Assembly (NCBI RefSeq): GCF_026914185.1
Contig: NC_070562.1
Location: forward strand, 4,526,001 to 4,590,000
Reading direction: 5' to 3'
DNA length: 64,000 bases
Origin: Puccinia triticina
Lineage: Eukaryota > Basidiomycota > Pucciniomycetes > Pucciniales > Pucciniaceae
The position numbers and the translations under genes were made by a program. The first letter of the stretch is position 1; each line of letters opens with the position of its first letter. Of this stretch, positions 22,050 through 62,725 are shown in pieces. The notes below the pieces were generated by a model. That model saw only the letters and a list, made by a program, of their open reading frames with translations. It had not been told where the DNA came from and did not search any database.

Positions 22050-22080
<31 letters not shown>

Positions 22081-24924: not shown

Positions 24925-25086
24925 TATTGCTAGATCACCAAACGGGGGACAAGGCCGAAACCAGAACAAACCAAACTCCAGAAGAGACAGAACCAAACGA
25001 ACCGAACTCCAGAAGAAAAGAACCGCACCCCAGAACGCCTACCTTGATTGTTTGAATCACCAATCTTCAAGCCAACAGTTCACCGG

Positions 25087-26497: not shown

Positions 26498-26543
26498 TGT
26501 GGTGTTCCATATGCGTGACAATGCCAAAAGCTCATTGCAGAGG

Positions 26544-26775: not shown

Positions 26776-26949
26776 TAGTGGAGGGAGTGTCTAATACAGT
26801 GCGGGGGAAGAAGGGAAGAAGGAGCAAGAGGGGAGGAGAGGCCTTGACCCCCAACATTGGAAGTGGAACAGGTTAGACAATGGATGCAGAGTGTGTGGAA
26901 GAGGATGGAAGATGGCTTGGTTGCATAGCAACACATGACATCATGCAGC

Positions 26950-31131: not shown

Positions 31132-32720
31132 GACAAGCTGTCATTTGGCCAGCTACTACGACCGGAGAACATCACGCCGGAAACATTCGCGGCGGTCTCC
31201 GTACTGGAGTGGGCCGAGGTGGATTAGTGGTTTGTCGACGAGACGATCGAGTTGGAGGACGCCGAAAGGTACTTCAAGGTGGATGTGCTTGGCAGCGGGG
31301 AAGGGGACCACTTAAATCCTTCAGATAGGGACATAGCGCCAACAGACGCCGAGCTGATAAGTCTCATCCGCGCTTCCACACATAAGGATCAACGACTGAT
31401 GGCCCTTTTACAAAGGATGCAGGCAGGCGACGCTAGTCTGGGCGAATACACGTACACGGATGGGGTGATGTACCGGAACGGGCTGATTGAGGTACTGGCG
31501 GACAAGTCAATTAAGCGAGCCGTCACGCAAAGTCGTCACGACTGCCAGCCGGTGGGACACCCAGGCAGGACCAAGACGCTGGCGCTGATCCAACGTTGCT
31601 TTACTTGGCCGTCGATGAAACGCTTTGTGAACGGATATGTCGACGGCTGCGACTCGTGCCAGAGGGTTAAGTCATCAACGCAAAAGCCGCTTGGGACCCT
31701 TGAACCGCTGCCCATACCAGCGGGCCCGTGGACCGACATCTCCTACGACCTAATCACAGATCTGCCGAATCCAAATGGAGCTGATAGCATCCTGACGGTA
31801 GTAGACCGTCTCACGAAGATGGCCCATTTCATACCTTGTAAAAAGACCACGAACGCGGGAGAGCTGGCGGATCTAATGCTACGACACGTGTGGAAACTCC
31901 ACGGGACGCCCAAAACAATTGTATCGGATAGAGGAAGCATCTTTATCTCACAGATCACAAGAGAGCTTAGCAAAGCTCTGGGTATCCGACTAAGCCCCTT
32001 GACAGCGTTCCACCCACAGACTGACGGCCAGTCCGAAATAGTCAACAAAGCCGTCGAGCAGTACTTACAACATTTTGTGAATTACCATCAAGACAACTGG
32101 GAACCGCTACTCGCCATTGCGGAATTCGCGTATAACAACCATGACCATTCCTCAACAGGTATGTCACCGTTCAAAGCTAATTACGGTTTCGACGCGACAA
32201 TAGGGGGCGTACCCTTGACAGGACAGTGTCTCCCAGCGGTCGAGAAGAGATTAGAAGACCTAGTCGAGGTACAACAAGAGCTGAAGGCAAACCTGGAGGG
32301 GGCACAACTTACCATGAAAAGACATTTTGACAAACGGGTGCGGGAAACACCATCGCGGAGCGTCGGCGACGCGGTCTGGCTCAGTAGCAGGAACATCTCA
32401 ACGACGAGGCCCAGTCCAAAATTATCTCACCGGTGGCTAGGACCGTATTTTATCTCTAATAAGGTTTCCCCATTGGTGTACACGCTGACACTACCGCCCT
32501 CAATGAAGGGGGTGCATCCAAACTTTTATGTTTCTTTGCTTAGGAAGGCTAGTCAAGACACCATAGAAGGAATAGCCGCGGCGGAACAAGGACCAGTCAA
32601 GGTAGAAGGGGAAGAAGAGTGGGAAGTTGAGGAAATTTTGGACAGTAGGAAATGGCGAGGAAAAAAGGAGTATCTAGTGGGATGGAAGGGCTACGGACCG
32701 GAAGCTGTGGTGATCAATCT
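31132..32720 (+). pseudogene. Chromovirus integrase with truncated chromodomain
   Basis: Last part of pol. HHCC zinc domain: HDCQPVGHPGRTKTLAL ... CDSCQRVK. Catalytic DDE core: DISYDLITDLPNPNG, TIVSDRGSIF, and FHPQTDGQSEIVNKAVEQYL with the glutamate present. GPY-type module: KLSHRWLGPYFI. The chromodomain starts WEVEEILDSRKWRGKKEYL and VGWKGYGPE but loses the family at the next residues, where the usual WEP box should be. A TAG at 31225-31227 replaces the expected tryptophan in AEVD-WFVDE; the open frame then runs from about 31252. The catalytic triad itself looks complete. Confidence 0.9.
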
Positions 32721-33762
32721 TGTGGCGCCGGTGGCGCATTCAGTTTCCAATTTTTTTCTTTTCACTCCCCTCTTCTCAGATTTCCACTCTTACTTCCTCT
32801 CAGCTCACCAGCTTTTGTTTTCAGCTTTCTTGGTCCTAACACAGCGCCTGCTGTGGGTTTTATTTCCTTGTTTGTTTTTTGGTTTCTGTTTCTTTCTTGT
32901 TTGTCATTGCCTGCCCTAAGTGTTTTCTGTCTTTTCCCTTTTTCTCTTTTCCTGTTTTGTTTCACTTTTGGTTCTTTTCTTTCTGCTTCCCATCACTGTG
33001 TTTTCCTTCTTTCTGTGTTGTTTTCTTTTTTTTCCTTCTGTTTCTCCTGGTTTTTGTCGCGCGCTTGTGCGCGCGGGGGTATGATGACTTGTCCGCAGCA
33101 TGTCACAGTCCCCAGAGTCTGAGTTCAGCTCGAACTCAGATGATGGGGCGGCATGGACTTCGTCTGAACCATAGAATTTTATCTCAGATCATCCATCAAC
33201 CTCAGAATCCCGAATCCAAAGTTTATTGATCCGACTGTTTGCCAATATACTCGCGGAGCTTCTGAGTTCATCCTCTCAGCCCCGCGCCAATCCTCTTCTA
33301 GATCCCTTTGCTTTTTTTTAGATCACTTTTCTCCGGCTAAGTTCGCCGGCTTTCCTTTTCCCTCAGACTCACAACACCAAAACCACCACCGACGGAAATC
33401 TACTTTCCGTCGTCTCTCAAAAATCCCCCTTCCCAAACGCTACCCCCTTCGAATCCCAGAATCCTCAGTTTTTCCTATACCACCGCAAAGGCAGCGCATC
33501 AGCGCAACATCCCTTCCAGTAACTGCCGACGGCCCAGCACCGGTCGGAGTTCCACAACGCCAATTCATGGGAAACAAGCGCCAATCTCACCCACTGTTGA
33601 CAATTAACCCAGGAATTCAACAACAATTTTCCCAACGCGGCGGATCAACACCGGAGGTCACGGCGGTTTAAATGAGGGTTGGCTTTTTCCCTGCGGGGTT
33701 TTTTGACGCCGCCCGGGGATCAGAGCGCAGAGCCGGGGGCTTGGGCGTTAAGGGCGGAGTAA
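32721..33762. other. Noncoding chromovirus tail, T-rich then hairpin-bearing
   Basis: From the broken chromodomain to the 3' LTR. 32745-33055 is strongly pyrimidine-rich on the plus strand. Hairpins include GCGCC-GGT-GGCGC near 32734, GCGCGCTTGTGCGCGC near 33060, and CTGAGTTCAGCTCGAACTCAG near 33119. A purine-rich GTTAAGGGCGGAGTAA directly before the 3' LTR is a plausible polypurine tract. No gene was recognised. Confidence 0.5.
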
Positions 33763-33950
33763 TGTTATGAGCTGCGCTTGCGCGCCTGGCTTACTCCAAG
33801 GGGCATGTTACTTGTTGTATGTACATGTCACAGGTCCCCAGCATTAGAGGGACCTGGGGGGGAGATCATCTTGCTTCCCCATCTAGCAATCAACTATTTA
33901 GCTAGACAGATCAGACAGCGCCTCCTCACCCCGACAGACAGACCAATACA
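33763..33950 (+). repeat. 3' LTR of the chromovirus
   Basis: 188 bp, same ends as the 5' LTR and two substitutions from it. The right duplication CAGAA follows at 33951-33955, after which the satellite sequence of foldback 1 resumes. Confidence 0.95.
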
Positions 33951-33955
33951 CAGAA

Positions 33956-35380
33956 ACACAAAAAATGACGCAATAGTTTGTGACTGATTAAATGGGGCTG
34001 CTACATTGGGAGATTTCATTGGCAAAAAAACTTCCTAAATTAATCTTTCAGCTTTTCTCATCATTACGGTACTAATATCATGAATTCATCCCCATTTCTA
34101 GTTGAGATATAGTTGCAGAAACACAACAAAACCAACCAACTAGGCAATATTTCACACTGATCAGACTGTAACTGCAACATTTTGGGACTTTCATAGAACA
34201 AAAATTTCTCAGATTATTGTTCAGATATTGCTGATCCTCATGGTACCAATATCATGAAATAAATCTTAGCCCTGGTTGAGACACAGTGGCAGAAGCACAA
34301 AAAACACTGCCTGATAATTTTAGGGGATAGTTTCAAACCAACCATACTCAATCAATCTCTTTAGATTCAAAAAATGTTGAACCTCAGATTCTGAGATAAC
34401 ATCAGTTGACCCATTGAATATATTGGGGCAACACCTCCCATTAGTCTTTGATTGAACAACAGAAGCAAAAGACACCTTACTCAAATCTGGTACAAACATT
34501 AAATCAATCTCAGGCCTAGTAGAAATTTACGATATTGGATATGATGAGTCATATATAAAAGCCATTAAGTTTGAACAAAATTGATGTAGCATGATATATT
34601 GAGACTTATTTTTTTGGACTTACTTCGCGCACTGCGAAAAGCTCTTCGCGCACTGTGCAGTGCGCGAAGTTTGCAAACACTTCGCGCACTGCGCGTGAAG
34701 GGCGCAACTTTTTCAAATTATTTTTTGACCAATCAATAGAAAAGCTTATTATTGTCCTCTGTGAATTTATTTGGAGTTTTTTGAAGCTTCCTTGTATGCT
34801 TAAAAATCACACCAATAAAAAAAACAAGTACAGCCATTTGGGGACCTGGAATTCATATTCCCACCAGTCAAAAAATCCAAATAATTTAGTGAATAATGAT
34901 ACATATGAATTCAAACTTTTTAGAATTTTTTGGCCACTTTGTGCAAGAATAAGGCTTTCAAAAATTAGGAAAGTTCACCACTTACTGGCGCATTTTGGCA
35001 TATCTTGAGAAACAGTTACTGGTTTTTGAAAGCCTTGTCCTTGTACAAAGTGGCCAAAAAGTTCTAAAACTTTTAAATACATGTTTAATATGATTCAATA
35101 AATTAATTGGATTTTTTGGCCTGTGGGAATATGAATTCCAGGTCCCCAAATGGCTGTACTTGTTTTTTTTATTGGTGGGATTTTTAAGCATACAAGGAAG
35201 CTTCAAAAAACTCCAAATAAATTCACAGAGGACAATAATAAGCTTGTCTATTGATTGGTCAAAAAATAATTTGAAAAAGTTGCGCCCTTCACGCGCAGTG
35301 CGCGAAGTGTTTGCAAACTTCGCGCACTGCACAGTGCGCGAAGAGCTTTTCGCAGGGCGCGAAGTAAGTCCGTATTTTTT

Positions 35381-35411
<31 letters not shown>

Positions 35412-35812
35412 CTTTGGAAAGTAGATTTCAACACTTCTGCAAGTTTCAAGTGACAATAATTCATGCTTCCCCATTCCTCCTCCCCCCTACCCCTTACCGC
35501 CTGACTTAAAAGACTATTCTTTCTCAGGAATAATTCATATGAGTATGTAAAAATGACCTATTTGATCTGGCAACAAAATGAAACTTTTACTATGGTTGAA
35601 AACTAAGAAAGGAGGAAATCAAGAGAAATAGAGATGATAGAAGGTCTATGATGCTGCAGGAAGGAAACAAATTAAAGAGAAATTTCAAAAAAAAAAAAAA
35701 CATGATCAATATAATTTGATCAATATATGCCATATTGATCAATATAATTTGATCAATATATGCCATATTGATCAATATATGCCTCCCCAAATTCATCCAT
35801 GTTTGTAGTGTT
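33956..35812. repeat. Right arm and terminus of foldback element 1
   Basis: Satellite remnants to about 34370, then the reverse complement of the left subterminal repeat (landmarks such as AGTCTTTGATTGAACAACAG and CTCAGGCCTAGTAGAAATTT mirror 15880-15960). The ATTGATCAAT repeats lie at 35703-35780. It ends at 35810 with the complement of CACTACAAACATGG. The snapback element at 34615-35372 is inserted in it. Confidence 0.85.
34615..35372. mobile_element. 758-bp snapback (near-perfect palindrome) element
   Basis: The two halves are inverted copies over almost the whole length, meeting near 34995. The ends read GGACTTACTTCGCGC, followed by nested GC palindromes such as CTTCGCGCACTGTGCAG. An 8-bp duplication TATTTTTT flanks it (34607-34614, 35373-35380). 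No protein gene; the long frames on each strand are mirror translations. The 8-bp duplication suggests a hAT or Mutator-type transposase in trans. Confidence 0.82.
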
Positions 35813-38169: not shown

Positions 38170-38820
38170 CACTACCAAGATGGATGAATTTGCGATGTTG
38201 TATATTGATCAATATAGCGTATATTGATCAATTTTTTTTTTTATTATTCTTCTTGATACGTTTGTCTGTTTTCCATGTCTCCTTAATACCATTCTATAAT
38301 CTCTCTCCTTCCCCTTGTGTTAGCTTCAAGCCACAGGAATCTTTTTTTTTTGCCTGATAGAATTCATAAATTTCTACATACACCATTCAATTCTTCCTGA
38401 AAAAAATACATTGCAAGTTTTAGGATTAATCCAGGGTGGCTGAGGGGTTTCAATTTTTTTTTTCTTTTTTTTTTTTACTTCAACAATTGGTCTGTTATCA
38501 GAAGTCTGCAAATCGACTTTTTTTTCCAAAAAGGAAAAACATTGACCCCTGACCTCTCTCATGATACCATCCTGCACACATTTTTAATTTGGTTGGTTGA
38601 ACTTGCTCAAGATATTGCATATCATACTTGAAGTGATACATGCATAGGAGGCCTTTTGAAATTAGTTTACCATGGTTTAGCATATTTTTGTCAGGTTCCT
38701 TTTTTTAACTACTTTTGTTATCAACCACAGATTAATGAGGAATATTTCCACATAAAATTTCATTGGACAATTTTTCTGCATGTAAAACCCAGGAATGATT
38801 TATTTGGGGTCACATCCATT
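38170..38820 (+). repeat. Left subterminal repeat of foldback A
   Basis: It holds the terminus, the iteron-like block TATATTGATCAATATAGCG (38200-38232), a T-run, and a stretch shared with 43052-43690, 57638-58310 and the inverted right ends at 48171-48879 and 62090-62725. Common landmarks are GTGTTAGCTTCAAGCC, TTGACCCCTGACCTCTCTC and ATCAACCACAGATT. Confidence 0.85.
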
Positions 38821-40108
38821 ATGCAGCAGCTGCAATCTGATCAGTTGCCAAATCTCACTACTTTGTTAGTTTCTTGGTATTTCTGCAACTATATCTCAAC
38901 ACAGCCTTGGAATTTTTCCATGAAATTGGTACCAAAATGTTTAAAAGCCCCCATAGATTCATTGTGTACCTTAAATGACCACAAAATCCCCAAATGTAGC
39001 TGCTACAATCTGATCAGTGGCCAAATATCACTAATTTGGTAGTTTCTTGGTGTTTCTGACACTATATCTCAACACAGCCTGGGAGTTCTTCCATGATATT
39101 GGTTTCGAAATGATCAATAGTCCCCAAGGATTCATTGTGTACCTTAAGTGACCACAAAACTACCTAATGTAGCCCCTACAACCTGATCAGTTGCCAAATA
39201 TCACTAATTTGGTAGTTTCTTAGTGTTTGTGCCACTATATCTCAACACAGCCTAGGATTCTTCCATGATATTGGTATCAAAATGTTCAGTAGCCCCCAAG
39301 GATCCATTGTACCTTAAATGACCACAAAACCCCCAAATGTAGCAGCTACAATCTGATCAGTTGCCAAATCTCACTAATTTGGTAGTTTCTTGGTGTTTCT
39401 GCAACTATATCTCAATGCAGCCTGGCAGTTCTTCCATGATATTGGTTTCAAAATGATTGATAGTTCCCAAGGATTCATTTTGTACCTTATATGTCCATAA
39501 AACCCCCTAATGTAGCCCCTACGACCTGATCAGTTGCCAAATATCACTAATTTGGTAGTTTCTTGGTGTTTCTGCCACTATATCTCAAAGCGGCATGGGA
39601 GTTCTTCCATGATATTGGTATCAAAATGATAAATAGCCCCCAAGGATTCATTGTGTACCTTAAATGACCACAAAACCCCCAAATGTAGCAGCTACAATCT
39701 GATCAGTTGCCAAATCTCACTAATTTGGTAGTTTCTTGGTGTGACTGCCACTATATCTCAAAGAAGCCTGGAATTCTTCCATGATATTGGTATCAAAATG
39801 ATACATAGCCCCCAAGGATTCATTGTGTCCCTTGAATGACCACAAAACCCCCAAATGTAGCAGCCACAATGTGATCAGTTGCCAAATATCACTAATTTGG
39901 TAGTTTCTTGGTGTTTCTGCCACTATATCTCAGGCCAGCATGGGATTTCTTCCATGATATTGGTACCAAAATGATCAAATTCCCCTGAAGATTTATTGTG
40001 TACCTTGGATGACCACAATACCCCCAAATGTAGCAGCTACGATGTGATCAGTTGAAGAATATCACCAATTTGGTAGTTTCTTGGTGTTTCTGCCACTATA
40101 TGTCAGCC
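38821..40108 (+). repeat. Satellite array (foldback A, plus arm)
   Basis: About seven monomers of roughly 173 bp beginning GATCAGTTGCCAAATATCAC, each with TTTCTGCCACTATATCTCA, CATGATATTGGTAYC and ACCACAAAACCCCCAAATG. It shares the core phrase with the foldback 1 satellite but is a distinct subfamily. Confidence 0.88.
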
Positions 40109-40998
40109 TACGTGATGCCAAAGACAGAAACTTCTAGCTACACGTGGTGCAATAATAATATGAAAGAGTATAAAACTCTCAGACAAAAGTATAAGGGATA
40201 ATTCCAATGGATATATTGGTAATTAATATATGAAAAAATGACGTAATTATATTAATAAAATTAATATAGTTAAATAAAGAGAGGCCTGATAAAATCAGGG
40301 GTGTTTAAGCCCTCAAAAGCAAAAACTGGGGCCTGTAAACAGGTGTGGTTTAAATCCCAGCAAGGAATGGCGAAGAATCTCAAGAGAAAGGGGTTTGAAC
40401 TTACTAGTAAAAAGCCCTTAAAGTCTTGAGGTTCTTCAGGGTAGAAACTGGGCAGTTGAAAGCGCTTGAAGAGGTTGATTCTGAAGGCTTGGTGGACACT
40501 GGGCAATTTCTGGCGACAAAATGAGGCTAAAAACAACTGCTAAGGGACTTACCAGGCTAGAAACAGGCTATTGAGCACGTGTTGAAGGCGGGTAAATTCA
40601 AGTAGGTATGTAAAAGCGTGAGAAAAGGCCTTTTGGGGCGGCCAGAGGGCCCTTTGAATACCCGTGGTAGCTCTCTGGGGCGCCTGGGGAGCTACAGGGC
40701 CACTGGCCAACTTGTGGGCGCTTTTTGGCCAGGCTGTTGACGCTACAAGGGCTAATTCTTCTTTGGGAAGATGTACTAGCCTGTTTGGGGCGCCTCCAGG
40801 CGGATTTCCATCCTGGCTGATGGCGCCATAGAAGCTAGTCTTCTTTGGGAATATGTACTGGCCATTTGTGGGCGCCTACAGTTCAGGATTCCCTCATCCA
40901 GGCAGATGAGCTGTTACATGTCTCATATTTATTCAAATGGGCCACAGTGCTTCCCAATTGTTCTGTACTATGTATGCATTAGGTATTGAATTGTTTTA

Positions 40999-41456: not shown

Positions 41457-43051
41457 TGTCTAACCAACAAGTTAACCCATCCAAACAAACAACATCGAAT
41501 GGCGGTACTCAAACAACATCAAACGGCGGTACTCCATCGACCACAAGCGCGATAGGTAAAAACTCTGGAATTGGCACTCCAATGACCGCCGGAATGACCG
41601 CCGGCGTGACTGTTACTCCAGAGGTTTGGGCACAAATGCAAAGCCTCCTTGCTTTGTCTCCAATTCAACAAGTCCAACCAAACACAATCAGCAGTTGTCC
41701 GGAAGCTCTTTCAATAGGATCTGCAGCTCCAACCGATCTTGCGATGGCTTCCGATTCCACATTGTTGATACCATCTTTGGACCATTCTTTGTTGAACTCT
41801 GGCTTGGACAACGGTGGCTCTAAAAACAAAGAAGTCAAATCAGATTCCAACTGCGGCAAACAACTCTCCACCAATTCCGAAGCCAATCAAGCAGCCAAGG
41901 AAACCGTCTCTTATTCCGAAGCTAATCAAGCAGCCAAGGAAACCATCTCCGAAGCTAATCATTTCGGCGCCTGTCCTGACACTGAAGTCCTCAAACCTGT
42001 TACTCAAGTCCTTAACAAAACGCTTGATTTTTTGAAAAAAAGTGACTTTGATAAGTATGATTTCAAAGCCGGAGGTAATATCTTAGTTGTTTTAGACTGC
42101 CTTTTTCTGCCGATCTGATATTTTACTAATTTTTTTGCTATGTAGGGCCATTGGACCCTCCCCCGTCCACTTGCTTTGCCTCGATGGATGATGTTGTTTG
42201 CTTCTGTCAATTGTGGGCGAAAACGCACGGATATGCTGTTTCCAAGTCAAACTCTCACCCCGGCAAAAACATTTACATCAAATGCGACCGCTCAGGTCAT
42301 TTTTGTGGCTCGATAATAAACAAATCCGGCCGAAAAACATCCTCAACCAAGATCAACTGCCCTTTTCACCTTAAAGCCTCAATCCCGACCAGCAAAAAAA
42401 TCACCAACAAAGTATGGACTCTGGAAGTCTTGAATGGAACCCACAACCATGGCCCATCCGATGTACCTGCCAGTCACTCTTCTCACAAACAGCTTATACC
42501 AGAGCAGGTAGAGGAGATCAGAAAGCTTTCACAAGCAAATCTGAAGCCCGCCCAGATCTTATTACAACAAAACATTTGCAACTAACAAAACTATTAGTAA
42601 CGCTCTCCAGAAGATTTGTCGAGAAGAACTCAACGGTAGGGACCCAATACAAGCCTTATTGGCCGTCCTGAGGGAATTGAACTGGGCCTACGACGTAAAG
42701 GTGAACTCGAGTGGTGTGGTTGTCAATCTTTTCTTTGCTCATCCGGGGGCAATTCACCTTGCACGCATAAACCATCATGTTGCTCTCTTGGATTCAACGT
42801 ACAAGACAAACCGCTACGACATTCCGCTCCTACACGTAATTGGTCAAACGGCAACAAACCGATCTTTTTTGATTGCATTCTGCTTTCTGACTTTTGAGGA
42901 CAATGATAACTATCTCTGGGCTGTGAATACCCTGAAAAAGCTTGTCTGGCGACCTCAACGCATACCAAAGGTCTTTATTACTGATCGGGACTCTGCCTTA
43001 CGGAAAGCTTTGGCCGCCATCTTCCATGAATCACAAGCAAACCTGTGCATG
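41457..43051 (+). pseudogene. MULE transposase, N-terminal part
   Basis: From ATG 41457 (MSNQQVNPSKQTTSNGG), a low-complexity N-terminus, then an intron (donor near 42077, acceptor near 42146) and a FAR1-type zinc-binding domain: FASMDDVVCFCQLWAKTHGY, IKCDRSGHFCG, CPFHLKAS, GTHNHGPSD. A one-base shift near 42568 separates it from FATNKTISNALQKICREELN. The MULE catalytic domain follows with HHVALLDSTYKTNRY and VFITDRDSALRKALAAIF, providing the first two acidic residues. The frame is cut after QANLCMH by foldback B and resumes at 48883. Frameshift and insertion make it a pseudogene. Confidence 0.85.
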
Positions 43052-43689
43052 CACTACCAAGATGGATGAATTTGCAATGTCGTATATTGATCAATTTATA
43101 TTGATCAATTTTTTTTTATTCCTGTTGATACCTTTGTCTGTGTTCCATGTCTCCTTAAGACTCTCCTATAATCTCTATCCTTCCCCCTGTGTTAGCTTCA
43201 AGCCGCAGGAATCTTTTTTTTTTTTTTTTTTTTTGCCTGATAAAATTCATGAATTTCTACATAAACCATTCAATTCTTCCTGAAAATGCAAGTTTTAGGA
43301 TTGATCCAGGGTAGCTGAGGGGTCTCAATTTTTTTTCTTCTTTTTTTTACATCAAAAATTGATGTTTGATGAAGTCTCCAAATCTACTTTTTTTCAAAGA
43401 AGGAAAAACATTGACCCCTGACCTCTCTCATGATACCATCCTGCACTCATTCTTCACTTGGTTGGTTGAACTTCCTGAAGATATTGCATATCATACTGGG
43501 AGTACTACATGCATAGAAGGCCTTTTTGAGATTAGTTTACCATGGTTTAGCATATTTTTGTCAGGTTCTTTTTTTATCTACTTTTGTTATCAACCACAGA
43601 TTGATGAGGAATATTTCCTCAGAAAATTTCATTGGGAAATTTTTCTGCATATAAAACCCAGAAGTATTATATTTGGGGTCACATCCCTT

Positions 43690-45028
43690 ATGCAGCAGCT
43701 ATAATCTGATCAGTTGCCAAATAGCACTAGTTTGGTTGTTTCTTGGTGTTTCTGCGACTATATCTCATCCCAGCCTGAAAATTCTTCCAGAATATTGGTA
43801 CAAAAATGTTTAAAAGCGCACAAAGTTTCATAATTTACCTTTGCTGACCACAAACCCCCCAAATGTAGCAGCTACAGTCTGATCAGTATCCAAATATCAC
43901 TACTTTGGCAGTTTCTGGGTGTTTCTGCCACTATATCTCATCCCAGCGTGGGTATTCTTCTGCCATATGGTTACCAAAATGTTTACAAGCCCCCAAGGTT
44001 TCATTATGTACCTCTGCTGACCACAAAACCCCCAAATGTAGCAGCTAAAGTTTGATCAGTTTCCAAATATCACTACTTTGGCAGTTTCTGGGTGTTTCTG
44101 CCACTATATCTCATCCCAGCGTGGGAATTCTTCTGCCATATGGTTACAAAAATGTTGAAAAGCCATCAAAGTTCCATTATGTTCCTTTTATGACCACAAA
44201 ATCCCCACATTGAGCAGGTACAGTATGATCAGTTTCCTAATATCACTACTTTAGTAGTTTCTGGTTGTTCCTGTCACTATATCTCATCCCAGCGTGGGAA
44301 TTCTTCTGCCACAGTGTTACCAAAAAGTTCACAAGCGGAGAAATTTCCATCATGTACCTTTACTGACCACAAAACCCCCAAATGTAGCAGCTACAGTCTG
44401 ATCAGTTTCCAAATATCACTACTTTGGTAGTTTCTGGGTGTTTCTGCCACTGTATCTCATCCCAGCGTGGGAATTCTTCTGCCATATGGTTACCGAAATG
44501 TTTAAAAGCGTCCAAAATTTCATTACGTACCTTTACTGACCACAAAACCCCCAAATGTAGCAGCTACAGTCTGATAAGTTTCCAAATATCACTACTTTGG
44601 CAGTTTCTGGGTGTTTCTGCCACTATATCTCATCCTACCATGGGTATTCTTCTGCCATATGGTTACCAAAATGTTTAGAAGCCCCCAAAGTTTCATTATG
44701 TACCTTTGCTGACTGCAAAACCACCAAATGTAGCAGCCACAGTCTGATCAGTTTCCAAATATCACTACTTTGGCAGTTTCTGGGTGTTTCTGCCACTATA
44801 TCTCATCCCAGCGTGGGAATTCTTCTGCCACATGGTTACCAAAATGTTGACAAGCCTTCAAAGTATCATTATGTACCTTTGCTGACCACAAAACCCCCAA
44901 GCGTAGCAGCTACAGTATGATCAGTTTGCAAATATCACTACTTTGGTAGTTTTTGGGTGTTTCTGCCACTGTATCTCATCCCAGCGTGGGACTTCTTCTG
45001 CCATATGTGTACCAAAATGTTTACTACA
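43690..45028 (+). repeat. Satellite array (foldback B, plus arm)
   Basis: About seven to eight ~173-bp monomers starting GATCAGTTTCCAAATATCAC, with CTGCCACTATATCTCATCCC and TTCTTCTGCCATATGGTTAC. This is a third subfamily of the same satellite. Repeated ~107-codon frames (GCFCHYISS...) are satellite translation. Confidence 0.9.
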
Positions 45029-48000
45029 TTTGGGGGTTTTGTGGTCAGCAAAGGTACATAATAAACCTTTGGGGGCTTTTCAAACTTTTGGTAACCATAT
45101 GGTAGAAAAAAACCCACGCTGGGATGAGATATAGTGGCAGAAACACCCAGAACATGCCAAGGTAGTGATATTTGGAAACTGATCAGACTGTAGCTGCTAC
45201 ATTTGGGGGTTTTGTGGTCAGCAAACACCAGGACAAAAAAATAGTCACTTGATGGCAAAGCTTTGGTTTCTGCTCCAGAGCTACTCCAGTGCTGCTCCAA
45301 GTCTGCTCCTCCAGCACTTGTAGAGCTTGCAGGACTGCACCAGAGCACTCAATGTGGCACAGTCAGCTGATCGTAATTTTTTCCCAGGAACAGCTGATGC
45401 TCATCATAAGCTGAGCAGTAGGCATTGACTGAGCCTGGGCCAAAGCTGAGCATTGGCTGAGCCTGGGCCACAGCTGAGCATTGGATATTCCAAGCCTGAA
45501 ACAAATCGAAGTGTCAGCTGGACCAAGAATATTCCAAATCTGAGCATCAGCTTAGCCAACAATGGCCCAAAGCTGAGCATACAAAGCTGAGCATTGGCTG
45601 AGCCAAGGCTGTTCCAAAGCTGAGTATCAGATTTTTTGAGACTATTCAAAAGATTAATATCACCTGAGCCAAGGCTGGTCCACAGCTGAGCATCAGCTGA
45701 GCCAAGGCTGGTCCACAGCTGAGCATCAGCTGAGCCAAGGCTGGTCCGCAGCTGAGTATCAGCTGAGCCAAGGCTGGTCCACAGCTGAGCATCAGCTGAG
45801 CCAAGGCTGGTCCACAGCTGAGCATCAGCTGAGCCAAGGCTGGTCCACAGCTGAGGATCAGCTGAGCCAAGGCTGGTCCACAGCTGAGGATCAGCTGAGC
45901 CAAGGCTGGTCCACAGCTGAGCATTGTCTTAGCCAAGATTGGTCCACAGCTGAGCATCAGCTGAGCCAAGGCTGGTCCACAGGTGAGCATAAGCTGTTAC
46001 AGGAGTGGTCAGACTCAGAATCTGAGCATTTGCTGGGCCGAGATTTATCCAAAGCTGAAAATCAGCTGAGCCAATACTGGTCCAAAGCTGAGCATTGGCT
46101 GGGCCAATGATAGTCCTAATCTGAGTGTAAGCTGAGCCATGACTGGAATAAAGCTGAAAATAAGCTGGGCCAGGACTGGTTCTGATCTGGGCAACAAAGC
46201 TGAGCATGAGCTGGGCACCAAAGCTGAGCATAAGCTGGGAGCTAAAGCTGAGTATCAGCTGACCAGAAATGGGGATCAGTGGTGCCCAGCAAAAACTGAG
46301 GATCTCCTGTGGAAATTCTTAAACTGGTGAGATGGTGGGTAGATGGTGGGTAGATGATGGGTAGATGGTGGGTAGATGGTGGGTAGATGGTGGGTAGCCC
46401 GCTGGAGCTGGCATGATGTCACTTGTCATCAAGTGACTATTTTTTTTTCCTGGTGAAAGGTACATATTCAAACTTTGGGGGCTTGTAAACATTTTGGTAA
46501 TCATATGGCAGAAGAATACCCACGGTGGGATAAGATATAGTGGCCAAAACACCCAGAACATGCCAAGGTAGTGATATTTGGAAACTGATCAGACTGTAGC
46601 TGCTACATTTGGGGGTTTTGTGGTGAACAAAGGTATGTAATGAAATTTTGGACGCTGGTAAACATTTTGGTTACCCTATGGCAGAAGAATACACACGCTG
46701 GGATGAGATATAGTGGCAGAAACACCCAGAAACTGCCAAAGTAGTGATATTTGGGAACTGATCAGACTGTAGCTGCTACATTTGGCGGCTTTGTGGTCAG
46801 CAAAGGTACATAATAAACCTTTGGGGGCTTTTCAACATTTTGGTAACCATATGGCAGAAGAATACCCACGCTGGGATGAGATATAGTGGCAGAAACACCC
46901 AGAAACTGCCAAAGTAGTGATATTTGGAAACTGATCAGACTGTAGCTGCTACATTTGGGGGTTTTGTGGTGAACAAAGGTACGTAATGAAATTTTGGACG
47001 CTCGTAAACATTTTGATGCCCATATGGCAGAAGGATACCCACGCTGGGATGAGATATACTCGCAGAAACACCCAGAAACTGCCAAAGTAGTGATATTTGG
47101 AAACTGATCAGACTGTAGCTGCTACATTTGGGGGCTTTGTGGTCAGCAAAGGTACCTAATAAACCTTTGGGGGCTTTGAAACATTTTGGTAACCATATGG
47201 CAGAAGGATACCCACGCTGGGATGAGATACAGTGGCAGAAACACCCAGAAAATGCCAAAGTAGTGATATTTGGAAACTGATCAGACTGTAGCTGCTACAT
47301 TGGGGGTTTTGTGGTCAGTAAAGGTACATAATGAAATTTTGGGGGCTTGTCAACATTTTGGTAACCATATGGCAGAAGAATACCCATGCTGGGATGAGAT
47401 ATAGTGGCAGAAACACCCAGAAACTGCCAAAGTAGTGATATTTGGAAACTGATCAGACTGTAGCTGCTACATTTGGTGGTTTTGCAGTCAGCAAAGGTAC
47501 ATAATGAAACTTTGGGGGCTTCTAAACATTTTGGTAACCATATGGCAGAAGAATACCCACGGTGGGATGAGATATAGTGGCAGAAACACCCAGAAACTAC
47601 CAAAGTAGTGATATTTGGAAACTGATCAGACTGTAGCTGCTACATTTGGGGGTTTTTTGGTCAGCAAAGGTACGTAATGAAATTTTGGACGCTCGTAAAC
47701 ATTTTGGTGCCCATATGGCAGAAGAAGTCCCACGCTGGGATGAGATATAGCAACAGAAACACCCAGAAACTACCAAAGTAGTGATATTTGGAAACTGATC
47801 AGACTGTAGCTGCTAAATTTGGGGGTTTTGTGGTCAGTAAAGGTACATAGTGAAACTTTTGAGGCTTGTCAATTTTTTTGTTACAATATGACAGAAGAAT
47901 TCCCACACTGGGATGAGATATAGTGGCAGAAAAACCAAGAAGCTACCAAAGTAGTGATATTTGGAAACTGATTAGACTGTAGGTGCTACATTTGGGGGTT

Positions 48001-48170
48001 TTGTGGTCAACAAAGGTACATTATGAAACTTTGTGTGCTTGTCAACATTTTGGTACCAATATTTTGGAAGAATTACCAGGCTGGGATGAGATATAGTCGC
48101 AGAAACACCAAGAAACAACCAAAGTAGTGCTATGTGGCAACTGATCAGATTATAGCTGCTGCATAAGGGA
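45029..48170 (-). repeat. Satellite array (foldback B, minus arm)
   Basis: Same monomers in reverse orientation at 45029-45225 and 46456-48170. The break between is the CACCAGG element. Monomer ends such as GACTGTAGCTGCTACATTTG recur at about 173-bp spacing. Confidence 0.9.
45226..46455. mobile_element. CACCAGG-ended element with minisatellites
   Basis: Inverted ends start CACCAGGA, then an A-run, then TAGTCACTTGATG on both strands. A 3-bp duplication AAA (45223-45225, 46456-46458) splits the satellite phrase GTCAGCAAAGGTAC. The core is a ~36-bp minisatellite of AGCTGAGCCAAGGCTGGTCC (about ten copies, 45660-45990), more diverged copies to 46260, and a 12-bp GGTGGGTAGATG repeat at 46325-46395. 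The open frame on the minus strand (repeat of MLSCGPALAQ) is repeat translation. Confidence 0.85.
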
Positions 48171-48882
48171 TGTGACCCCAAATATAATATTTATGGGTTT
48201 TATATGCAGAAAAATTTCCCAATGAAATTTTCTGAGGAATATTCCTCATCAATCTGTGGTTGATAACAAAAGTAGATAAAAAAAGAACCTGACAAAAATA
48301 TGCTAAACCATGGTAAACTAATTTCAAAAAGGCCTTCTATGCATGTAGTACTCCCAGTATGATATGCAATATCTTCAAGAAGTTCAACCAACAAAGTTAA
48401 GAATGAGTGCAGGATGGTATCATGAGAGAGGTCAGGGGTCAATGTTTTTCCTTTTTCAAAAAAAGTAGATTCTGAGACTTCTGATAAGATCAATTGTTGA
48501 TGTAAAAAAAAGAAAAAAGAATTTGAGACCCCTCAGCTACCCTGGATTAATCTCAAAACTTGCATTTTCAGGAAGAATTGAATGGTGTATGTAGAAATTC
48601 ATGAATTTTATCAGGCAAAAAAAAAAAAAGATTCCTGTGGCTTGAAGCTAACACAGGGCGAAGGAGAGAGATTATAGAAGAGTATTAAGGAGACATGGAA
48701 CACAGAAAAAGGTATCAACAGGAATAAAAAAAAAAAAAAGATCAATATAAATTGATCAATATACGCTATATTGATCAATATAAATTGATCAATATACGCT
48801 ATATTGATCAATATAAATTGATCAATATACGCTATATTGATCAATATACGACATCGCAAATTCATCCATCTTGGTAGTGGCA

Positions 48883-51482: not shown

Positions 51483-52110
51483 TTGTTTTAATGCGTCAGG
51501 AATATTCTGTTTGCATTCACGTGACATCATTACATATGTACAGCTTATGTAATGTGTGTAGTGTTTTACGTGGAGGGGCAGAATTGATGTCATTACTTCC
51601 CTGGAGGGCGTGCTGTAATGTACAGGTAGCCCTTCTTGGGGTTTCATTCCTTTTTAGAGCTCTGCGCCGTCTTCAGGCATAGCGCGCAGCCCGCGGGTTT
51701 AGAGTTAACTCAACCTGAGTTGGGCTATCTTCTAAACTTAACATAACACTTCAGTTTTGTGGCTATTGAAGTGTTATAAGCATATGTACATATGTATACA
51801 AGCAAGAAGGTTGCTCAATTCGAGGATACCTTGTAAATTCTAATTGGGTGATTACATAATGAAGCAGTAAGAATTAAGGGTATCTGTGAGTGGGGTACCC
51901 TAGGTTAATTTAGGCGCAGATTAAGAATATACAATAATATTCAGATTTTTACTTATGTAAGAGACAGTAATAATGTCTCTTTCATAGGTAATTATTTTTT
52001 ATGTTTTTATTTTATGGTATTACATGTGTAAGAGTGTAATAATATCTCTTTTATATGTAATATACTTTTTATTTTTATGTTACGGTGGCTCTGCTATAAT
52101 AGCCAGCTGA

Positions 52111-53121
52111 CACTATATCTCAGCCCAGCATGGGAGTTCTTCCATGATATTGGTACCAAAATGATCAAATTCTCTCAAAGATTTATTGTGTACCTTGAAT
52201 GACCACAAAACCGCCAAATGTAGCAGCTAAAATGTGATTGGTTGCCAAATTTCACTAATTTGGTTGTTTATTGGTGTTTCTGCCACTATATCTCAGCACA
52301 GCGTGGGATTTCTTCCATTATATTGGTGCCAAAATGATCAAATTCCCTCAAAGATTCATTGAGTACTTTGAATGACCACAAAAACCCCAAATGTAGCAGC
52401 CACAATGTAATCAGTTGCCAAATATCACTAATTTGGTAGTTTTTTGGTGTTTCTGCCACTATATCTCAGCGCAGCGTGGGAGTTCTTCAATGATATTGGT
52501 ACCAAAATTATTGAATGCCCTCAAAGATGAATTGTGTACCTTGAATGACCACAAAACACCCAAATGTAGCAGCTACAATGTGAATGGTTGCCAAATATCA
52601 CCAATTTGGCAACTAATCACATTGTGGCTGCTACACTTGGGTGTTTTGTGGTCATTCAAGGTACTCAATCAATCTTTGAGGGAGTTTGATCATTTTGGTA
52701 CCAATATCTTGGAAGAACTCCCAAGCTGCGCTGAGATGTAGTGGCAGAAACACCAAGACACTACCAAATTAGTGATGTTTGGCAACTGATCACATTGTGG
52801 CTGCTACACTTGGGGGTTTTGGTCATTCGAGGTACTCAATCAATCTTTGAGGGCATTTGATCATTGTGGCACCAATATCATGGAAGAATTCCCATGCTGC
52901 GCTGAGATAAAGTGGCAGAAACACCAAAAAACTACCAAATTAGTGATATTTGGCAACTGATCAAATTGTGGCTGCTACATATGGGGGTTTTGTGGTCATT
53001 TGAGGGACTCAATCAATCTTTGAGGGCATTTGATCATCTTTGTACCAATATTATGGAAGAACTCCCATGCTGCGCTGAGATATAGTGGCAGAAACACCAA
53101 GAAACTACCAAATTAGTGATA
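52111..53121. repeat. Satellite array with symmetry point (foldback A)
   Basis: Plus-oriented monomers to about 52600, then minus-oriented monomers to 53121. The turn at CACCAATTTGGCAACTAATC marks the centre of foldback A. Confidence 0.85.
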
Positions 53122-55289: not shown

Positions 55290-55844
55290 GCCTTGCGGGT
55301 CAAAAATTTGTACAGCGGCGGCGTGGCGGAGGCATTGTTGTTGAGGATACATGCGGGGGGATCCCAGGGGAAGGCTTGAGGCGAGCTTGGCACTGCTGGT
55401 TGATGGTGTATAAAAGGGGGTTGTTGTGTTCAAATGATCCCCCAGGCGTCCTCTGCCGCTGTACTTCCAGGTGCGGTTCATCCTCACCCCCTCCGCTGTT
55501 GCACTTGTGCAGTTTGAGGGGTTAAACTTGTTGGCCCCCCTTTGCATAATGCCTTAAATGCCGCGCGCTTGGGGTCATCCTCTCATTGTTTTTTAACCCT
55601 GCTAGACAGGGATGGACGGTGGGCCACGGTGCATCAGCTTGCTGATACTAGGTGGCTGGGTGCAGGTTGTTGTAAAATTGTGTTTTTTTGTTGATTTTGG
55701 CATTTGTAGAGGGAAAACCCTTCATGTCTTTTTCTGGAAGTTGTAGAGGGGAAAACCTTCATTTTTTGTTTGTGATTTTTGGAGATTTGTAGGGGAAACC
55801 CTTGAATTTTTGTTTTGTGATTCAGAGGCTTTAATAAACTTGGA

Positions 55845-57395
55845 TTTTGCAACTGATCACAGTGTGGCTGCTACATTTGGGGGTTTTGTGGTCATTCAAG
55901 GTACACAAGTCATCCTGAGGGCATTTGATCATTTTGGTACCAATATCATGGAAAAAATCCCACGCTGCGCTGAGATGTAGTGGCAGAAACACCAAGAAAC
56001 TACCAAATTAGTGATATTTGGCAACTGATCAAATTGTGGCTGCTACATATATTTGGGGGTTTTGTGGTCATTCAAGGTACACAAGTCATCCTTGAGGGCA
56101 TTTAATCATTTTGGTACCAATATCATCAAAGAACCCCCACGCCGGGCTGAGATGTAGTGGCAGAAACACCAAGAAACTACCACATTAGTGATATTTTGCA
56201 ACTGATCACAGTGTGGCTGCTACATTTGGGGATTTTGTGGTCATTTGAGGTACTCAATTAATCTGTGAGGGAATTTTATCATTTTGGTACCAATATCATG
56301 GAAGAACTCCCATGCTGCGCTGAGATATAGTGGCAGAAACACCAAGAAACTACCAAATTAGTGATATTTTGCAACTGATCACATTGTAGCTGCTACATTT
56401 GGGGGTTTTGTTGTCATTCAAGGCACTCAATTAATCTTTGAGGGAATTCATCATTTTGGTACCAATATCATGGAAGAAATCCCACGCTGCGCTGAGATAT
56501 AGTGGCAGAAACACCAAGAAACTACAAAATTAGTGATATTCGGCAACTGATCACATTGTGGCTCCTACACTTGGGGGTTTTGTGGTCATTCAAGGTATTC
56601 AATCAATATTCGAGGGCATTTGATCATCTTGGTACCAATATCATGGAAGAACTCCCATGCTGCGCTGAGATATAGCAGCAGAAACACCAAAAAACTACCA
56701 AATTAGTGATATTTTGCAACTCATCACAGTGTGGCTGCTACATTTGGGGGTATTGTGGCCATTCAAGGTACACAATGAATCTTCAGGGGCATTTGATCCT
56801 TTTGGTACCAATATCATGGAAGAAATCCCACGCTGCGCTGAGATATAGTGGCAGAAACACCAATAAATGACCAAATTAGTGATTTTTGGCAACCGATCAC
56901 ATTGTAGCTGCTACATTTGGGGGTTTTGTGGTCATTCAAGGAACACAATGAATCTTTGAGGCATTTGATCATTTTGGTACCAATATCATCAAAGAAATTC
57001 CACACTGGGCTGAGATATAGTGGCAGAAACACCAAGAAACTACCAAATTAGTGATATTTGGCAACTGATCACATTGTGGCTGCTCCATTTGGGGGTTTTG
57101 TGGTCATTCAAGGTACTCGATGGATCTTTGAGGGAATTTCATCATTTTGGTACCAATATCATGAAAGAAATCCCACCCTGCGCTGAGATATAGTGGCAGA
57201 AACACCAATAAACAACCAAATTAGTGATATTTGGCAACCAATCACATTTTAGCTGCTACATTTGGCGTTTTGTGGTCATTCAAGGTACACAATGAATCTT
57301 TGAGGGCATTTGATCATTTTGGTACCAATAACATGGAAGAACTCCCACACTGCGCTGAGATATAGTGGCAGGAACACCAAGAAACTACCAACAAC
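55845..57395 (-). repeat. Satellite array (foldback A, minus arm)
   Basis: About nine minus-oriented monomers, continuing exactly from 53121 once Helitron 2 is removed. It breaks off at ACTACCAA near 57395. Confidence 0.85.
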
Positions 57396-57637: not shown

Positions 57638-58309
57638 CACTACCAAGATGGATGAATTTGCGATGTCGTATATTGGCCAATATAGCGTATATTGATCAAT
57701 TTTTTTTTTTTGATTATTCCTCTTGATACCTTTGTCTGTTTTCCATGTCTCCTTGATACTATTCTATAATCTATCTCCTTCTGAATGTGTTAGCTTCAAG
57801 CCACAGGATTTTTTTTTTCTTTTGCCTGATAACATTCATAAATTTCTACATACACCACTCAATTCTTCCTGAAAAAAAGATGTTGCAAGTTTTAGGATTA
57901 ATCCAGGGTAGCTGAGGGGTCTCAAATTTTTTTTCTTTTTTTTTTTACTTCAACAATTGATGTTATCAGAAGTCTCCAAATCAACTTTTTTTCAAAAGAG
58001 GAAAAACATTGACCCCTGACCTCTCTCATGATACCATCCTGCACACATTTTTAATTTGGTTGGTTGAACTTGCTCATGATATTGCATATCATACTTGAAG
58101 TGCTACATGCATAGAAGGCCTTTTTGGAATTAGTTTACCATGGTTTAGCATCTTTTTGTCAGGTTCTTTTTTTTCTCTACTTTTGTTATCAACCACAGAT
58201 TAATGAGGAATATTTCTACATAAAATTTCATCGGACGATTGTTCTGCATATAAAACCCAGAAATATTTTAACATATAATTTCTTTGGGGTCGCATCCATT
58301 ATGCAGCAG

Positions 58310-60861
58310 CAACAATGTGATCAGTTCCCAAATATCACTAATTTGGTAGTTTCTGGCCATTTCTGCCACTATATCTCAACACAGCGTGGGAGTTCTTCCA
58401 TGATATTATTATCAAAATGATCAATAGCCACCAAGAATTCATTGTGTACCTTAAATGACCACAAAACCTCCAAATGTAGCAGCTACAATCTGACCAGTTG
58501 CCAAATCTCACTAATTTGGTATTTTCTTGGTGTTTCTGCCACTATATCTCTGCGCAGCATGGGAGTTCTTCCATGATATTGGTACCAAGATGATCAAATG
58601 CCCTCAAAGATTGATTGAGTACCTCCAATGAGCACAAAACCCCCAATTGTAGCAGGCACAATGTGATCAGTTGCCAAATATCACTAATTTGGTAGTTTCT
58701 TGGTGTTTCTGCCACTATATCTCAGCGGAGAATGGGGGTTCTTCCATGATATTGGTACCAAAATGATCAAATGCCCCTGAAGATTCATTGTGTACCTTGT
58801 ATGACCACAAAACCCCCAAATGTAGCAGCCACAGCGCAGCATGGGAGTTCTTCCATGATATTGGTACCAAAATGATCAAATGCCCTCAAACATTCAGTGA
58901 GTACCTTGAATGACCACAATACCCCCAAATGTAGCAGCCACACTGTGATCAGTTGCAAAATATCACTAATTTGGTAGTTTCTTGGTGTTTCTGCCACTAT
59001 ATCTTAGCACAGCATGGGAGTTCTTCCATGATATTGGTACCAAAATTATCACACGCCCTCAAACATTTATTGAGGCCCTTGGGTGACCACAAAACCCCCA
59101 AATGTAGCAGCCACAATGTGATAGGTTTCCAAATATCACTAATTTGGTAGTTTGTTGGTGTTTCTGCCACTATATCTCGGCCCAGCATGGGAGTTCTTTC
59201 ATGATATAGGTATATCAAAATGATCACCTGCCCTCACAAATTCATTGAGTACCTTGGATGACCACAAAACCCCCAAATGTAGCAGCCACAATGTGATCAG
59301 TTGACAAATATCACTAATTGGTAGTTTCTTGATGTTCCTGCCACTATATCTCAGCACAGCGTGGCATTTTTTCCATGATATTGGTACCAAAATGATCACT
59401 TGCCCTCAAACATTCATTGAGGACCTTGGATGATCACAAAACCCCCAAATGTAGCAGCCACAATGTGATCAGTTGACGAATATCACTAATCTGGTAGTTT
59501 CTTGATGTTTCCGCCACTATATCTCAGCGCAGCGTGGGATTTCTTCCATGATATTTGTACCAAAATGATCACATGCCCTCAAGCATCTATTGGGTACCTT
59601 GGATGACCACAAAACCCCCAAATGTAGCAGCCACAATGTGATCAGTTGCCAAATATCACTAATTTGGTAGTTTCTTGGTGTTTCTGCCACTATATCTCAG
59701 CGCAGCATAGGAGTTCTTCCATGATAATTGTACCAAAATGATCAAATGCCCTCAAACATTCATTGAGTACCTTGGATGACCACAAAACCCCCAATTGTAG
59801 CAGCCACAATGTGAGCAGTTGCCAAATATCACTAATTTGGTAGTTTCTTGGTGTTTCTGCCACTATATCTCAGCGCAGCATAGGAGTTCTTCCATGATAT
59901 TGGTACCAAAGGTTACATGCCCTCAAGGATTCTTGGAGTACCTTGGATGACCACAAAACCCCCAAATGTAGCAGCCACAATGTGACCAGTTGACAAATAT
60001 CACTAATTTGGTAGTTTCTTGATGTTTCCGCCACTATATCTCAGCACAGCGTGGGAGTTCTTCCATGATATTGGTACCAAAATGATTAATCAACGCTAGA
60101 GATTTATCGTGTACCTTGAATGACCACAAAACCCCCAAATGTAGCAGCGACACTGTGATCAGTTGCCAAATATCACTAATTTGGTAGTTTCTTGGTGTTT
60201 CTGCCACTATATCTCAGTGCAGCATGGGAGTTCTTCCATGATATTGGTACCAAAATGATCACATGCCCTTTAACATTTATTGAGTATCTTGGATGACCAC
60301 CAAACCCCCAAATGTAGCAGCCACAATGTGATCAGTTGACGATTCACTGATTTGGTAGTTTCTTGGTGTTTCTGCCACTATATCTCAGCACAGTGGGGGA
60401 GTTCTTCCATGATATTGGTACCAAAATGATCAAATGCCATCAAAAATTCATTGAGTATCTTGTATGACCACAAAACCCCCAAATGTAGCAGCCACAATGT
60501 GATCAGTTGGCAAATGTTCTAATTTGGTAGTTTCTTGGTGTTTCTGCCACTATATCTCAGCGCAGCATGGGAGTTCTTCCATGATATTGGTATCAAAATG
60601 ATCACATGCCCTCGAAAATTCATTGAGTACCTTGGATGACCACAAAACCCCCAAATGTAGCAGCCACAATGTGATCATTTGCCAAATATCACTAATTTGG
60701 TAGTTTCTTGGTGTTTCTGCCACTATATCTCAGCTCAGCGTGGGAGTTCTTCCATGATGTTGGTACCAAAATGATCAAATTCCCCTGAAGATTCATTGTG
60801 TACCTTGAATGACCACAATACCCCCAAATGTAGCAGCCACACTGTGATCAGTTGCCAAATC
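58310..60861 (+). repeat. Satellite array (foldback C, plus arm)
   Basis: About fifteen ~173-bp monomers starting GATCAGTTGCCAAATATCAC with TTTCTGCCACTATATCTCAG and GGGAGTTCTTCCATGATATT. Monomer sequence is very even, which suggests recent amplification or conversion. Confidence 0.9.
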
Positions 60862-62090: not shown

Positions 62091-62725
62091 TGACCCCAAA
62101 AACATTATTTCTGGGTTTTATTTTCAAAAAAATTGTCCAAAAAAATTTTATGTGGAAATATTCCCCATTAATCTGTGGTTGATAACAAAAGTAGATAAAA
62201 AAAAGAACCTGACAAAAATATGCTAACCCATGGTAAACTAATTTCAAAAAGGCCTCCTATGCATGTAGCACTTCAAGTATGATATGCAACATCTTGAGCA
62301 AGTTCAACCAACCAAATTCAAAATGTGTGCAGGATGGTATCATGAGAGAGGCCAGGGGTCAATGTTTTTCCTTTTTTGAAAAAAAAGTCAATTTGCAGAC
62401 TTCTGATAACAGATCAATTGTTGAAGTAAAAAAAAAAGAAAAAAAAAATTGAGACCCCTCAGCCACCCTGGATTAATCCTAAAACTTGCAATGTCTTTTT
62501 TTCAGGAAGAATTGAATGGTGTATGTAGAAATTTATGAATTCTATCAGGCAAAAAAAAAAGATTCCTGTGGCTTGAAGCTAACACAAGGGGAAGGAGAGA
62601 GATTATAGAATGGTATTAAGGAGACATGGAAAACAGACAAAGGTATAAAGAAGAATAATAAAAAAAAATTGATCAATATAAATTGATCAATATACGACAT
62701 TGCAAATTCATCCATCTTGGTAGTG

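What the first reader, a model, noticed from the sequence alone, without database searches (positions are those of the whole stretch)
43052..48879. A family of CACTA-type foldback transposons whose arms are inverted satellite arrays
Seen: three to four copies (11907-35812, 38170-57395, 43052-48879, 57638-62725) share the terminus CACTAC...ATGGATGAA, ATTGATCAAT iterons, a 0.6-1 kb subterminal block, and arms of ~173-bp satellite monomers running in opposite directions. Known: CACTA elements make 3-bp duplications, and foldback elements of insects have tandem repeats in their inverted arms. Inference: satellite DNA in this genome is mobile and can form hairpins of kilobases. I know no described fungal family of this form.
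Basis: partly seen in the sequence, partly recalled or inferred. Interest (0 to 1): 0.92.

Follow-up and report, generated by a model that had tools for sequence, protein, structure and literature searches.

The report
Satellite-armed foldback transposons of a rust
This rust-like fungal genome carries some two hundred or more jumping DNA elements built almost wholly from two satellite-repeat arrays facing each other, so that the satellite DNA is itself mobile and, as far as checked, lives almost only inside or beside these elements.

Summary
Element 43052-48879 is a non-autonomous DNA transposon: CACTAC...GTAGTG ends, ~640-bp subterminal blocks, arms of ~173-bp satellite monomers in opposite directions. 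Its insertion left a 3-bp duplication (GCA) plus a 2-bp TG filler, shown by three uninterrupted copies of the target gene. The 23-bp terminus occurs 434 times at up to one mismatch in a 122.8-Mb genome (reversed-pattern control 0); 72 of 100 listed termini form convergent pairs under 30 kb. Of 25 elements examined, 18 have exact 3-bp duplications, 4 one after a 2-bp filler, 3 none. All 22 examined members have exactly one polarity switch (>>> <<<). 99 and 94 of 100 listed satellite words lie in or beside such elements (4.4% of random positions). In subfamily A the arms meet at the monomer's only 6-bp inverted repeat (loops 3-12), as expected from snap-back synthesis. A sister family (CACTACAAACATGG) carries the same satellite inside-out (<<< >>>) around remnants of the first family's terminal block. 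No transposase gene with these ends was found. Closest known: Tetris, Galileo (Drosophila foldbacks) and satellite-bearing CACTA elements of Chenopodium.

The parts
43052..48879 (.). complete non-autonomous foldback element (family T1, satellite subfamily B)
   Evidence: CACTAC/GTAGTG ends, duplication GCA plus TG filler with three empty target paralogues
43052..43689 (+). left terminus and subterminal block with ATTGATCAAT iterons
   Evidence: genome search gave 672 first-look candidates, 40 of them scored, 49 matches
43690..45023 (+). left arm: ~7.7 satellite monomers of 173 bp, direction >
45024..45225 (-). start of right-arm satellite (direction <), interrupted by a nested insertion
45226..46455 (.). 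nested element with CACCAGG...CCTGGTG ends, 33-bp minisatellite inside, AAA target duplication; not part of the foldback element
   Evidence: tandem-repeat rows
46456..48164 (-). right arm: ~9.9 satellite monomers of 173 bp, direction <
48165..48879 (-). right subterminal block and terminus; 33-bp tandem iteron unit at 48740-48848
42545..43051 (+). target: MULE transposase gene interrupted by the element (left part; right part resumes at 48880)
   Evidence: PF10551 E 4.8e-22; 35 other places match the last 200 bases; L069-L071 uninterrupted
57638..62725 (.). complete T1 element, subfamily A; arms meet at the monomer hairpin (element position ~3214); no target duplication found
38170..40114 (+). 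left end, block and left-arm satellite of a third T1 element without a right end
52104..53121 (.). satellite > then <, likely the middle of the 38170 element beyond inserted DNA that holds the MULE gene
55844..57391 (-). satellite < array, likely the right arm of the 38170 element; terminal block missing
11907..35810 (.). element of sister family T2 (CACTACAAACATGG) with ~174/348-bp divergent satellite, converging arms, nested insertions; duplication AAA with TT filler

Best explanation
These are non-autonomous foldback DNA transposons, most likely of the CACTA (CMC) group. Shown: they insert as units at 3-bp duplicated targets, sometimes with 2 extra bases at one end; their termini occur in hundreds of dispersed places; the examined copies are made mostly of terminal blocks and inverted satellite arms. 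Inferred: a CACTA-type transposase encoded elsewhere acts in trans on the CACTAC ends and ATTGATCAAT iterons. The ancestor had a satellite array behind one end; replication or repair snapped back at the hairpin CCAAAT-ATCACTA-ATTTGG of the A-type monomer and copied the arm and terminal block in reverse, giving two identical ends and a foldback. Transposition then multiplied the unit, and unequal exchange changed arm lengths. A second family (T2) re-used T1 arms inside-out.
For: 434 termini at up to 1 mismatch, control 0. Of 100 listed termini, neighbours under 30 kb are 36 convergent, 6 divergent, 1 same; 10,000 label shuffles give mean 10.7, maximum 22 convergent. Duplications: 18 exact and 4 with a 2-bp filler of 25; mismatched-flank control 2.2% and 3.5%. 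Empty target in three paralogues. 22 of 22 T1 elements examined have one > to < switch. Satellite words: 99 of 100 and 94 of 100 listed places in a pair or within 15 kb inward of a terminus, versus 4.4% of random positions on C1-C5. Junction GTTGCCAAAT-loop-ATTTGGCAAC in 10 of 13 A-type elements, plus a diverged form in L029; its core is the monomer's only inverted repeat of 6 bp or more with a loop of 3-12. A-type monomers are no closer within than between elements (0.127-0.131 versus 0.127), so whole arrays were spread by transposition.
Against: No transposase gene with these ends was found: of 150 scored PF02992 places 1 lies in 80 terminus pairs (1.24 expected), and of 150 tallied PF13359 places 2 do (1.24 expected). 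This test is partial: the 80 pairs come from capped lists and cover 0.8% of the genome, and PF02992 places in wider or one-sided intervals (C3:589101 in a 40-kb interval, two on C13 in a 59-kb interval, C6:2728597 near a single T2 end) were not counted. 3 of 25 elements show no duplication; 28 of 100 listed termini are unpaired within 30 kb, some having a variant partner. The nine B-type elements lack the hairpin junction, so snap-back is supported for subfamily A only, effectively as one event. In B-type elements monomers are slightly closer within an element (0.108-0.110) than between (0.129). Assembly was not checked against reads.
Confidence: 0.82

Rival explanations
1. Ordinary satellite arrays in which single transposon ends happen to sit in inverted pairs through ectopic recombination; the arrays, not the transposon, are the unit.
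For: Arm lengths and junction positions vary widely; 28 of 100 listed termini were unpaired within 30 kb; three of 25 elements lack duplications; 1 and 6 of 100 listed satellite words lie away from listed termini.
Against: Exact 3-bp duplications, an empty target gene in three paralogues, and little satellite outside elements.
Confidence: 0.04
2. The transposition machinery is not CACTA but another 3-bp-duplicating group such as PIF/Harbinger.
For: Two T1 pairs contain PF13359 places; PF13359 genes are abundant; no CACTA gene with these ends was found.
Against: Two inside versus 1.24 expected; the C6 place resembles other stop-containing PF13359 copies elsewhere in coverage and length, so nesting is likely. 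Only 1 of 18 exact duplications is TWA, the PIF/Harbinger preference as recalled. Ends begin CACTAC.
Confidence: 0.13
3. Foldback form arose without snap-back, by ectopic recombination or end-to-end joining of two arms, with the hairpin position a coincidence or a later product of palindrome revision.
For: B-type junctions differ among elements and lack the hairpin; T2 has a T1-block centre rather than a satellite hairpin.
Against: The A-type junction falls exactly on the monomer's only inverted repeat of 6 bp or more with a loop of 3-12.
Confidence: 0.3
4. Assembly artefact: collapsed or mirror-joined satellite reads.
For: Reads were not available to me.
Against: One polarity switch in each of 22 elements, matching duplications across kilobases, and the same junction in ten loci.
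Confidence: 0.02

Closest known systems
Tetris (Drosophila virilis foldback; PMC4079207: abstract, section 10 and part 1 of section 16 read)
   Same: Non-autonomous foldback, long inverted repeats with a flanking domain and ~220-bp tandem repeats, transposase not found, linked to satellite DNA.
   Different: 8-10 bp duplications (authors suggest Mutator), three structurally complete copies, satellite also expanded into longer arrays. Here 3-bp duplications, hundreds of termini, satellite almost only in or beside elements where checked, an inside-out sister family, and a fungus.
Galileo (Drosophila, P superfamily; PMC3573991: abstract and outline seen) and FB (recalled)
   Same: Long internally repetitive inverted repeats, several structural subfamilies, exchange among copies.
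   Different: Galileo has a known P-type transposase; no such gene was found here; 3-bp duplication.
CACTA-like Jozin with a 171-bp satellite array inside (Chenopodium quinoa; PMC8978399: passages and section 10 read)
   Same: CACTA ends, satellite of almost the same monomer length inside the element.
   Different: 16.5-kb element with a tnp2 gene and one array near the 3' end; no inverted arms described in what I read.

Membership tests
CACTA (En/Spm, CMC) superfamily | CACTA terminal motif in inverted repeats | tested here: met
   CACTAC...GTAGTG
CACTA (En/Spm, CMC) superfamily | 3-bp target site duplication | tested here: met
   18 of 25 exact, 4 more with a 2-bp filler, 3 none; control 2.2% and 3.5%
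CACTA (En/Spm, CMC) superfamily | subterminal short repeats | tested here: met
   ATTGATCAAT iterons, 33-bp unit at 48740-48848
CACTA (En/Spm, CMC) superfamily | tnp2-type transposase in an autonomous member with the same ends | tested here: inconclusive
   none found: PF02992 is abundant, but 1 of 150 scored places lies in 80 listed pairs, and that one reads as a nested element; the pair list is incomplete, so membership is called likely, not shown
Foldback element (structural class) | long inverted arms with internal tandem repeats | tested here: met
   22 of 22 T1 elements examined; longest inverted alignments ~2.3 kb (T1) and ~4.5 kb (T2)
Mutator-type foldback | long duplication (8-10 bp for Tetris, PMC4079207) | tested here: not met
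   3 bp
PIF/Harbinger | TWA-type 3-bp duplication and PF13359 transposase (recalled) | tested here: not met
   1 of 18 TWA; PF13359 2 inside versus 1.24 expected
Satellite DNA in the classical sense | long free arrays in heterochromatin or centromeres | tested here: inconclusive
   99 and 94 of 100 listed words are in or beside elements; only the first 100 of 4,121 and 324 places were listed, on C1 and on C1-C5

The most novel reading that the evidence does not exclude
The satellite monomer is a foldback generator: its hairpin and its TGATCA-cored sites, resembling the ATTGATCAAT iterons, let arms snap back, be re-ended and be re-mobilised, so that new transposon families (T1-A, T1-B, inside-out T2) keep being made from one satellite under different CACTA ends, and satellite DNA in this fungus persists only by transposition.
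Probability: 0.3. Interest if true: 0.8.

Novelty: new variant of a known kind. Interest (0 to 1): 0.62.

Why it matters
It gives a case in which satellite arrays and transposons are nearly the same thing, with hundreds of termini and clean insertion scars, so the question of how satellites spread and how foldback elements form can be tested directly. The hairpin-centred junction is a readable trace of how an inverted duplication may arise. The inside-out sister family suggests that satellite arms can be moved from one set of ends to another. Long inverted arms could also feed small-RNA silencing and rearrangements, which was not tested.

Tried and rejected
Considered and rejected: L051 (C6) as the autonomous T2 element. 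It begins with 33 bp shared with the T2 end, followed by a SNF2-tnp2 element, but the sequence shared by L051, L054 and L055 starts at L051:233-234, so the SNF2-tnp2 element is probably nested in a T2 end. No right T2 end was found in the next 9 kb (L053). Fourteen 801-base stretches upstream of SNF2 genes showed no T1- or T2-like terminus by eye. PF13359 and PF02992 are not enriched in listed terminus pairs; PF18758 places were listed but not tallied against pairs. The search for other termini allowed one mismatch and so mostly returned T1 and T2 again, with a few variants (CACTACTAAG, CACTACGAAG, CACTACCAAC); its list covers C1-C3 plus one exact C12 place. A possible 8-bp repeat around the inserted DNA in the 38170 element was not conclusive. 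TGATCA is tenfold above a first-order Markov expectation in the arms (629 versus 61), but that follows from repetition of one monomer and is weak evidence for binding sites. Literature searches in which I saw no fungal family of this form: (open-licence PMC library only; listings of the best-ranked papers, not all hits).
Full report
What is there. Window 1-64000 is G000:C5:4526001-4590000 of a 122.8-Mb assembly in 18 contigs. A Gypsy-type open frame in the window (36647-37993) has its two best named matches in Puccinia coronata (69% and 58% identity); the best matches overall are unnamed. I take the genome as a Puccinia-like rust; the species was not given. The element at 43052-48879 has ends CACTAC/GTAGTG, a ~640-bp block with ATTGATCAAT iterons at each end, and arms of 173-bp monomers pointing towards each other. 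A 1,230-bp element with CACCAGG ends and an AAA duplication sits in its right arm, so the element itself has almost no unique centre.

It is a transposon. The left flank is a MULE transposase gene. 35 other places match the last 200 bases of this flank, and the alignments of the nine best of them all end at base 198. Three of these copies, read directly, run through without interruption: CCTGTGCACATGGCAC. In the window the order is CCTGTGCA-TG-element-GCACATGGCAC. So the duplication is GCA, and two bases, TG, lie between it and the left end. Among 25 elements (20 fetched T1 pairs, two T1 and one T2 in the window, two fetched T2) 18 have exact 3-bp duplications, 4 have one after a 2-bp filler, none after 1 or 3 bp, and 3 have none. 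With flanks of different elements combined (600 combinations) the rates are 2.2% exact and 3.5% for a 2-bp filler. Inference: cleavage sometimes takes 2 bp of the donor flank along.

Genome-wide. The 23-bp terminus occurs 214 + 220 times at up to 1 mismatch, and the reversed pattern 0 times. Of the 100 places listed (C1-C5), neighbours within 30 kb are 36 convergent, 6 divergent and 1 same; shuffled labels give a mean of 10.7 and a maximum of 22 convergent in 10,000. The 36 spans run from 3.5 to 26 kb; 24 are under 9 kb. I fetched 20 of these 24 and two more lie in the window; all 22 have left-arm monomers > and right-arm monomers < with exactly one switch at up to 4 mismatches to the core word. 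At 6 mismatches stray opposite hits appear in the window element. The 20-bp core word of the satellite occurs 2,069 + 2,052 times. Of the first 100 places (C1), 78 lie in a terminus pair, 21 within 15 kb inward of one terminus, and 1 elsewhere; for a rarer word (324 places, first 100 on C1-C5) the numbers are 77, 17 and 6. Random positions on C1-C5 fall in such intervals 4.4% of the time. The satellite is therefore almost confined to these elements and their surroundings, as far as these places show.

Subfamilies and junctions. Monomers fall into type A (13 of the 22 elements) and type B (9 of 22), about 22% apart. Within type A, distances inside an element (0.127-0.131) equal those between elements (0.127); in type B they are slightly smaller inside (0.108-0.110 versus 0.129). 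So arrays were mostly carried whole by transposition, with at most mild local homogenisation. In 10 of 13 A-type elements the arms meet at GTTGCCAAAT-(ATCACTA or its reverse)-ATTTGGCAAC, five in each orientation, some with a few substitutions; L029 has a more diverged form, and L024 and L040 differ. The A monomer contains CCAAAT-ATCACTA-ATTTGG, its only inverted repeat of 6 bp or more with a loop of 3-12. The junction is thus the monomer's own hairpin, with the sequence turning back on itself there. That is what self-primed synthesis from a folded-back end would leave. B-type junctions are diverse and show no such hairpin; L026/L037 and L032/L038 look alike in pairs by eye.

A sister family turned inside-out. 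The terminus CACTACAAACATGG... occurs 94 + 89 times at up to 1 mismatch over 19 bp. Two complete copies, L049 and L050 (9.4 kb, duplications TAG and CTT), have A-type satellite (0.139 from T1-A, which is 0.127 within itself) but in order <<< >>>, with inverted alignments of about 4.5 and 3.4 kb. The L049 centre holds pieces of the T1 terminal block at 82-85% identity: the reverse of 211-270, then 319-417 and 441-506; the L050 centre reads alike. Among 17 listed T2 pairs, 9 have listed satellite words in both directions and all 9 diverge (3 one direction, 5 no word); among 38 T1 pairs, 4 have both and all 4 converge (16 one direction, 18 no word); none is mixed. Exceptions: the window's own T2 element (11907-35810), which carries an older satellite about 40% divergent and none of the listed words, converges, and so by eye does a one-ended T2 place on C1 near 3661767. 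The simplest reading is that T1 arms were placed under T2 ends in reversed order.

What moves them. Not found. PF02992 (tnp2) has 150 scored places of 179 candidates. Many belong to a large family that also carries a SNF2 helicase gene: 28 of the 30 best SNF2 places have a PF02992 place downstream on the same strand within 15 kb, typically at 5.9-6.9 kb. Those elements seem to have their own ends. One of 150 PF02992 places lies in 80 listed terminus pairs (1.24 expected), apparently nested; PF13359 has two of 150 tallied (1.24 expected). The pair list is incomplete, and PF02992 places in wider or one-sided intervals (C3:589101, two on C13, C6:2728597) were not counted. CACTA membership is therefore likely, by ends, duplication and iterons, but not proven.

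Literature. Tetris, Galileo and a satellite-bearing CACTA of Chenopodium are the nearest published things that I saw; passages of a review (PMC9659126) list Tetris and Jozin among transposons that gave rise to satellites. No fungal family of this form appeared in the listings, which cover only open-licence papers. In two rust genome papers the word CACTA does not occur in the main text (PMC12129025, PMC10977897; passages seen). Verdict: real, well supported, a new variant of the foldback kind.

Noticed in passing
G000 genome-wide; examples L051, L052, L043: A large family of CACTA tnp2 transposons that carries a SNF2 helicase gene upstream of tnp2: 28 of the 30 best SNF2 places have a PF02992 place downstream on the same strand, typically 5.9-6.9 kb away; SNF2 query 116 matches. 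Probable left end near L051:233 reads CACCAGGGAAGC.
   Followed up: partly
window 45226-46455: Nested 1.2-kb element with CACCAGGA(C/A)AAAAAAATAGTCACTTGATG inverted ends, AAA duplication and a 33-bp minisatellite.
   Followed up: partly
window 34616-35371: A 756-bp palindrome (90.7% self-inverse) inserted in the T2 right end beside a poly-T run.
   Followed up: no
window 43052 and 11907-35810; L025, L036: Target duplications separated from one element end by exactly 2 bp (TG, TT, TC, AA) in 4 of 25 elements, never 1 or 3 bp.
   Followed up: partly
G000:C2:372510, 2853784, 3296413-3326154; C3:3549734-3555512: A third terminus variant CACTACCAACATGGATGAATT, twice in a convergent pair in the part listed.
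   Followed up: no
window 23548-24043: 19-bp tandem repeat (CCCCTTTCATGTGTACATA) inside the T2 element between satellite blocks.
   Followed up: no
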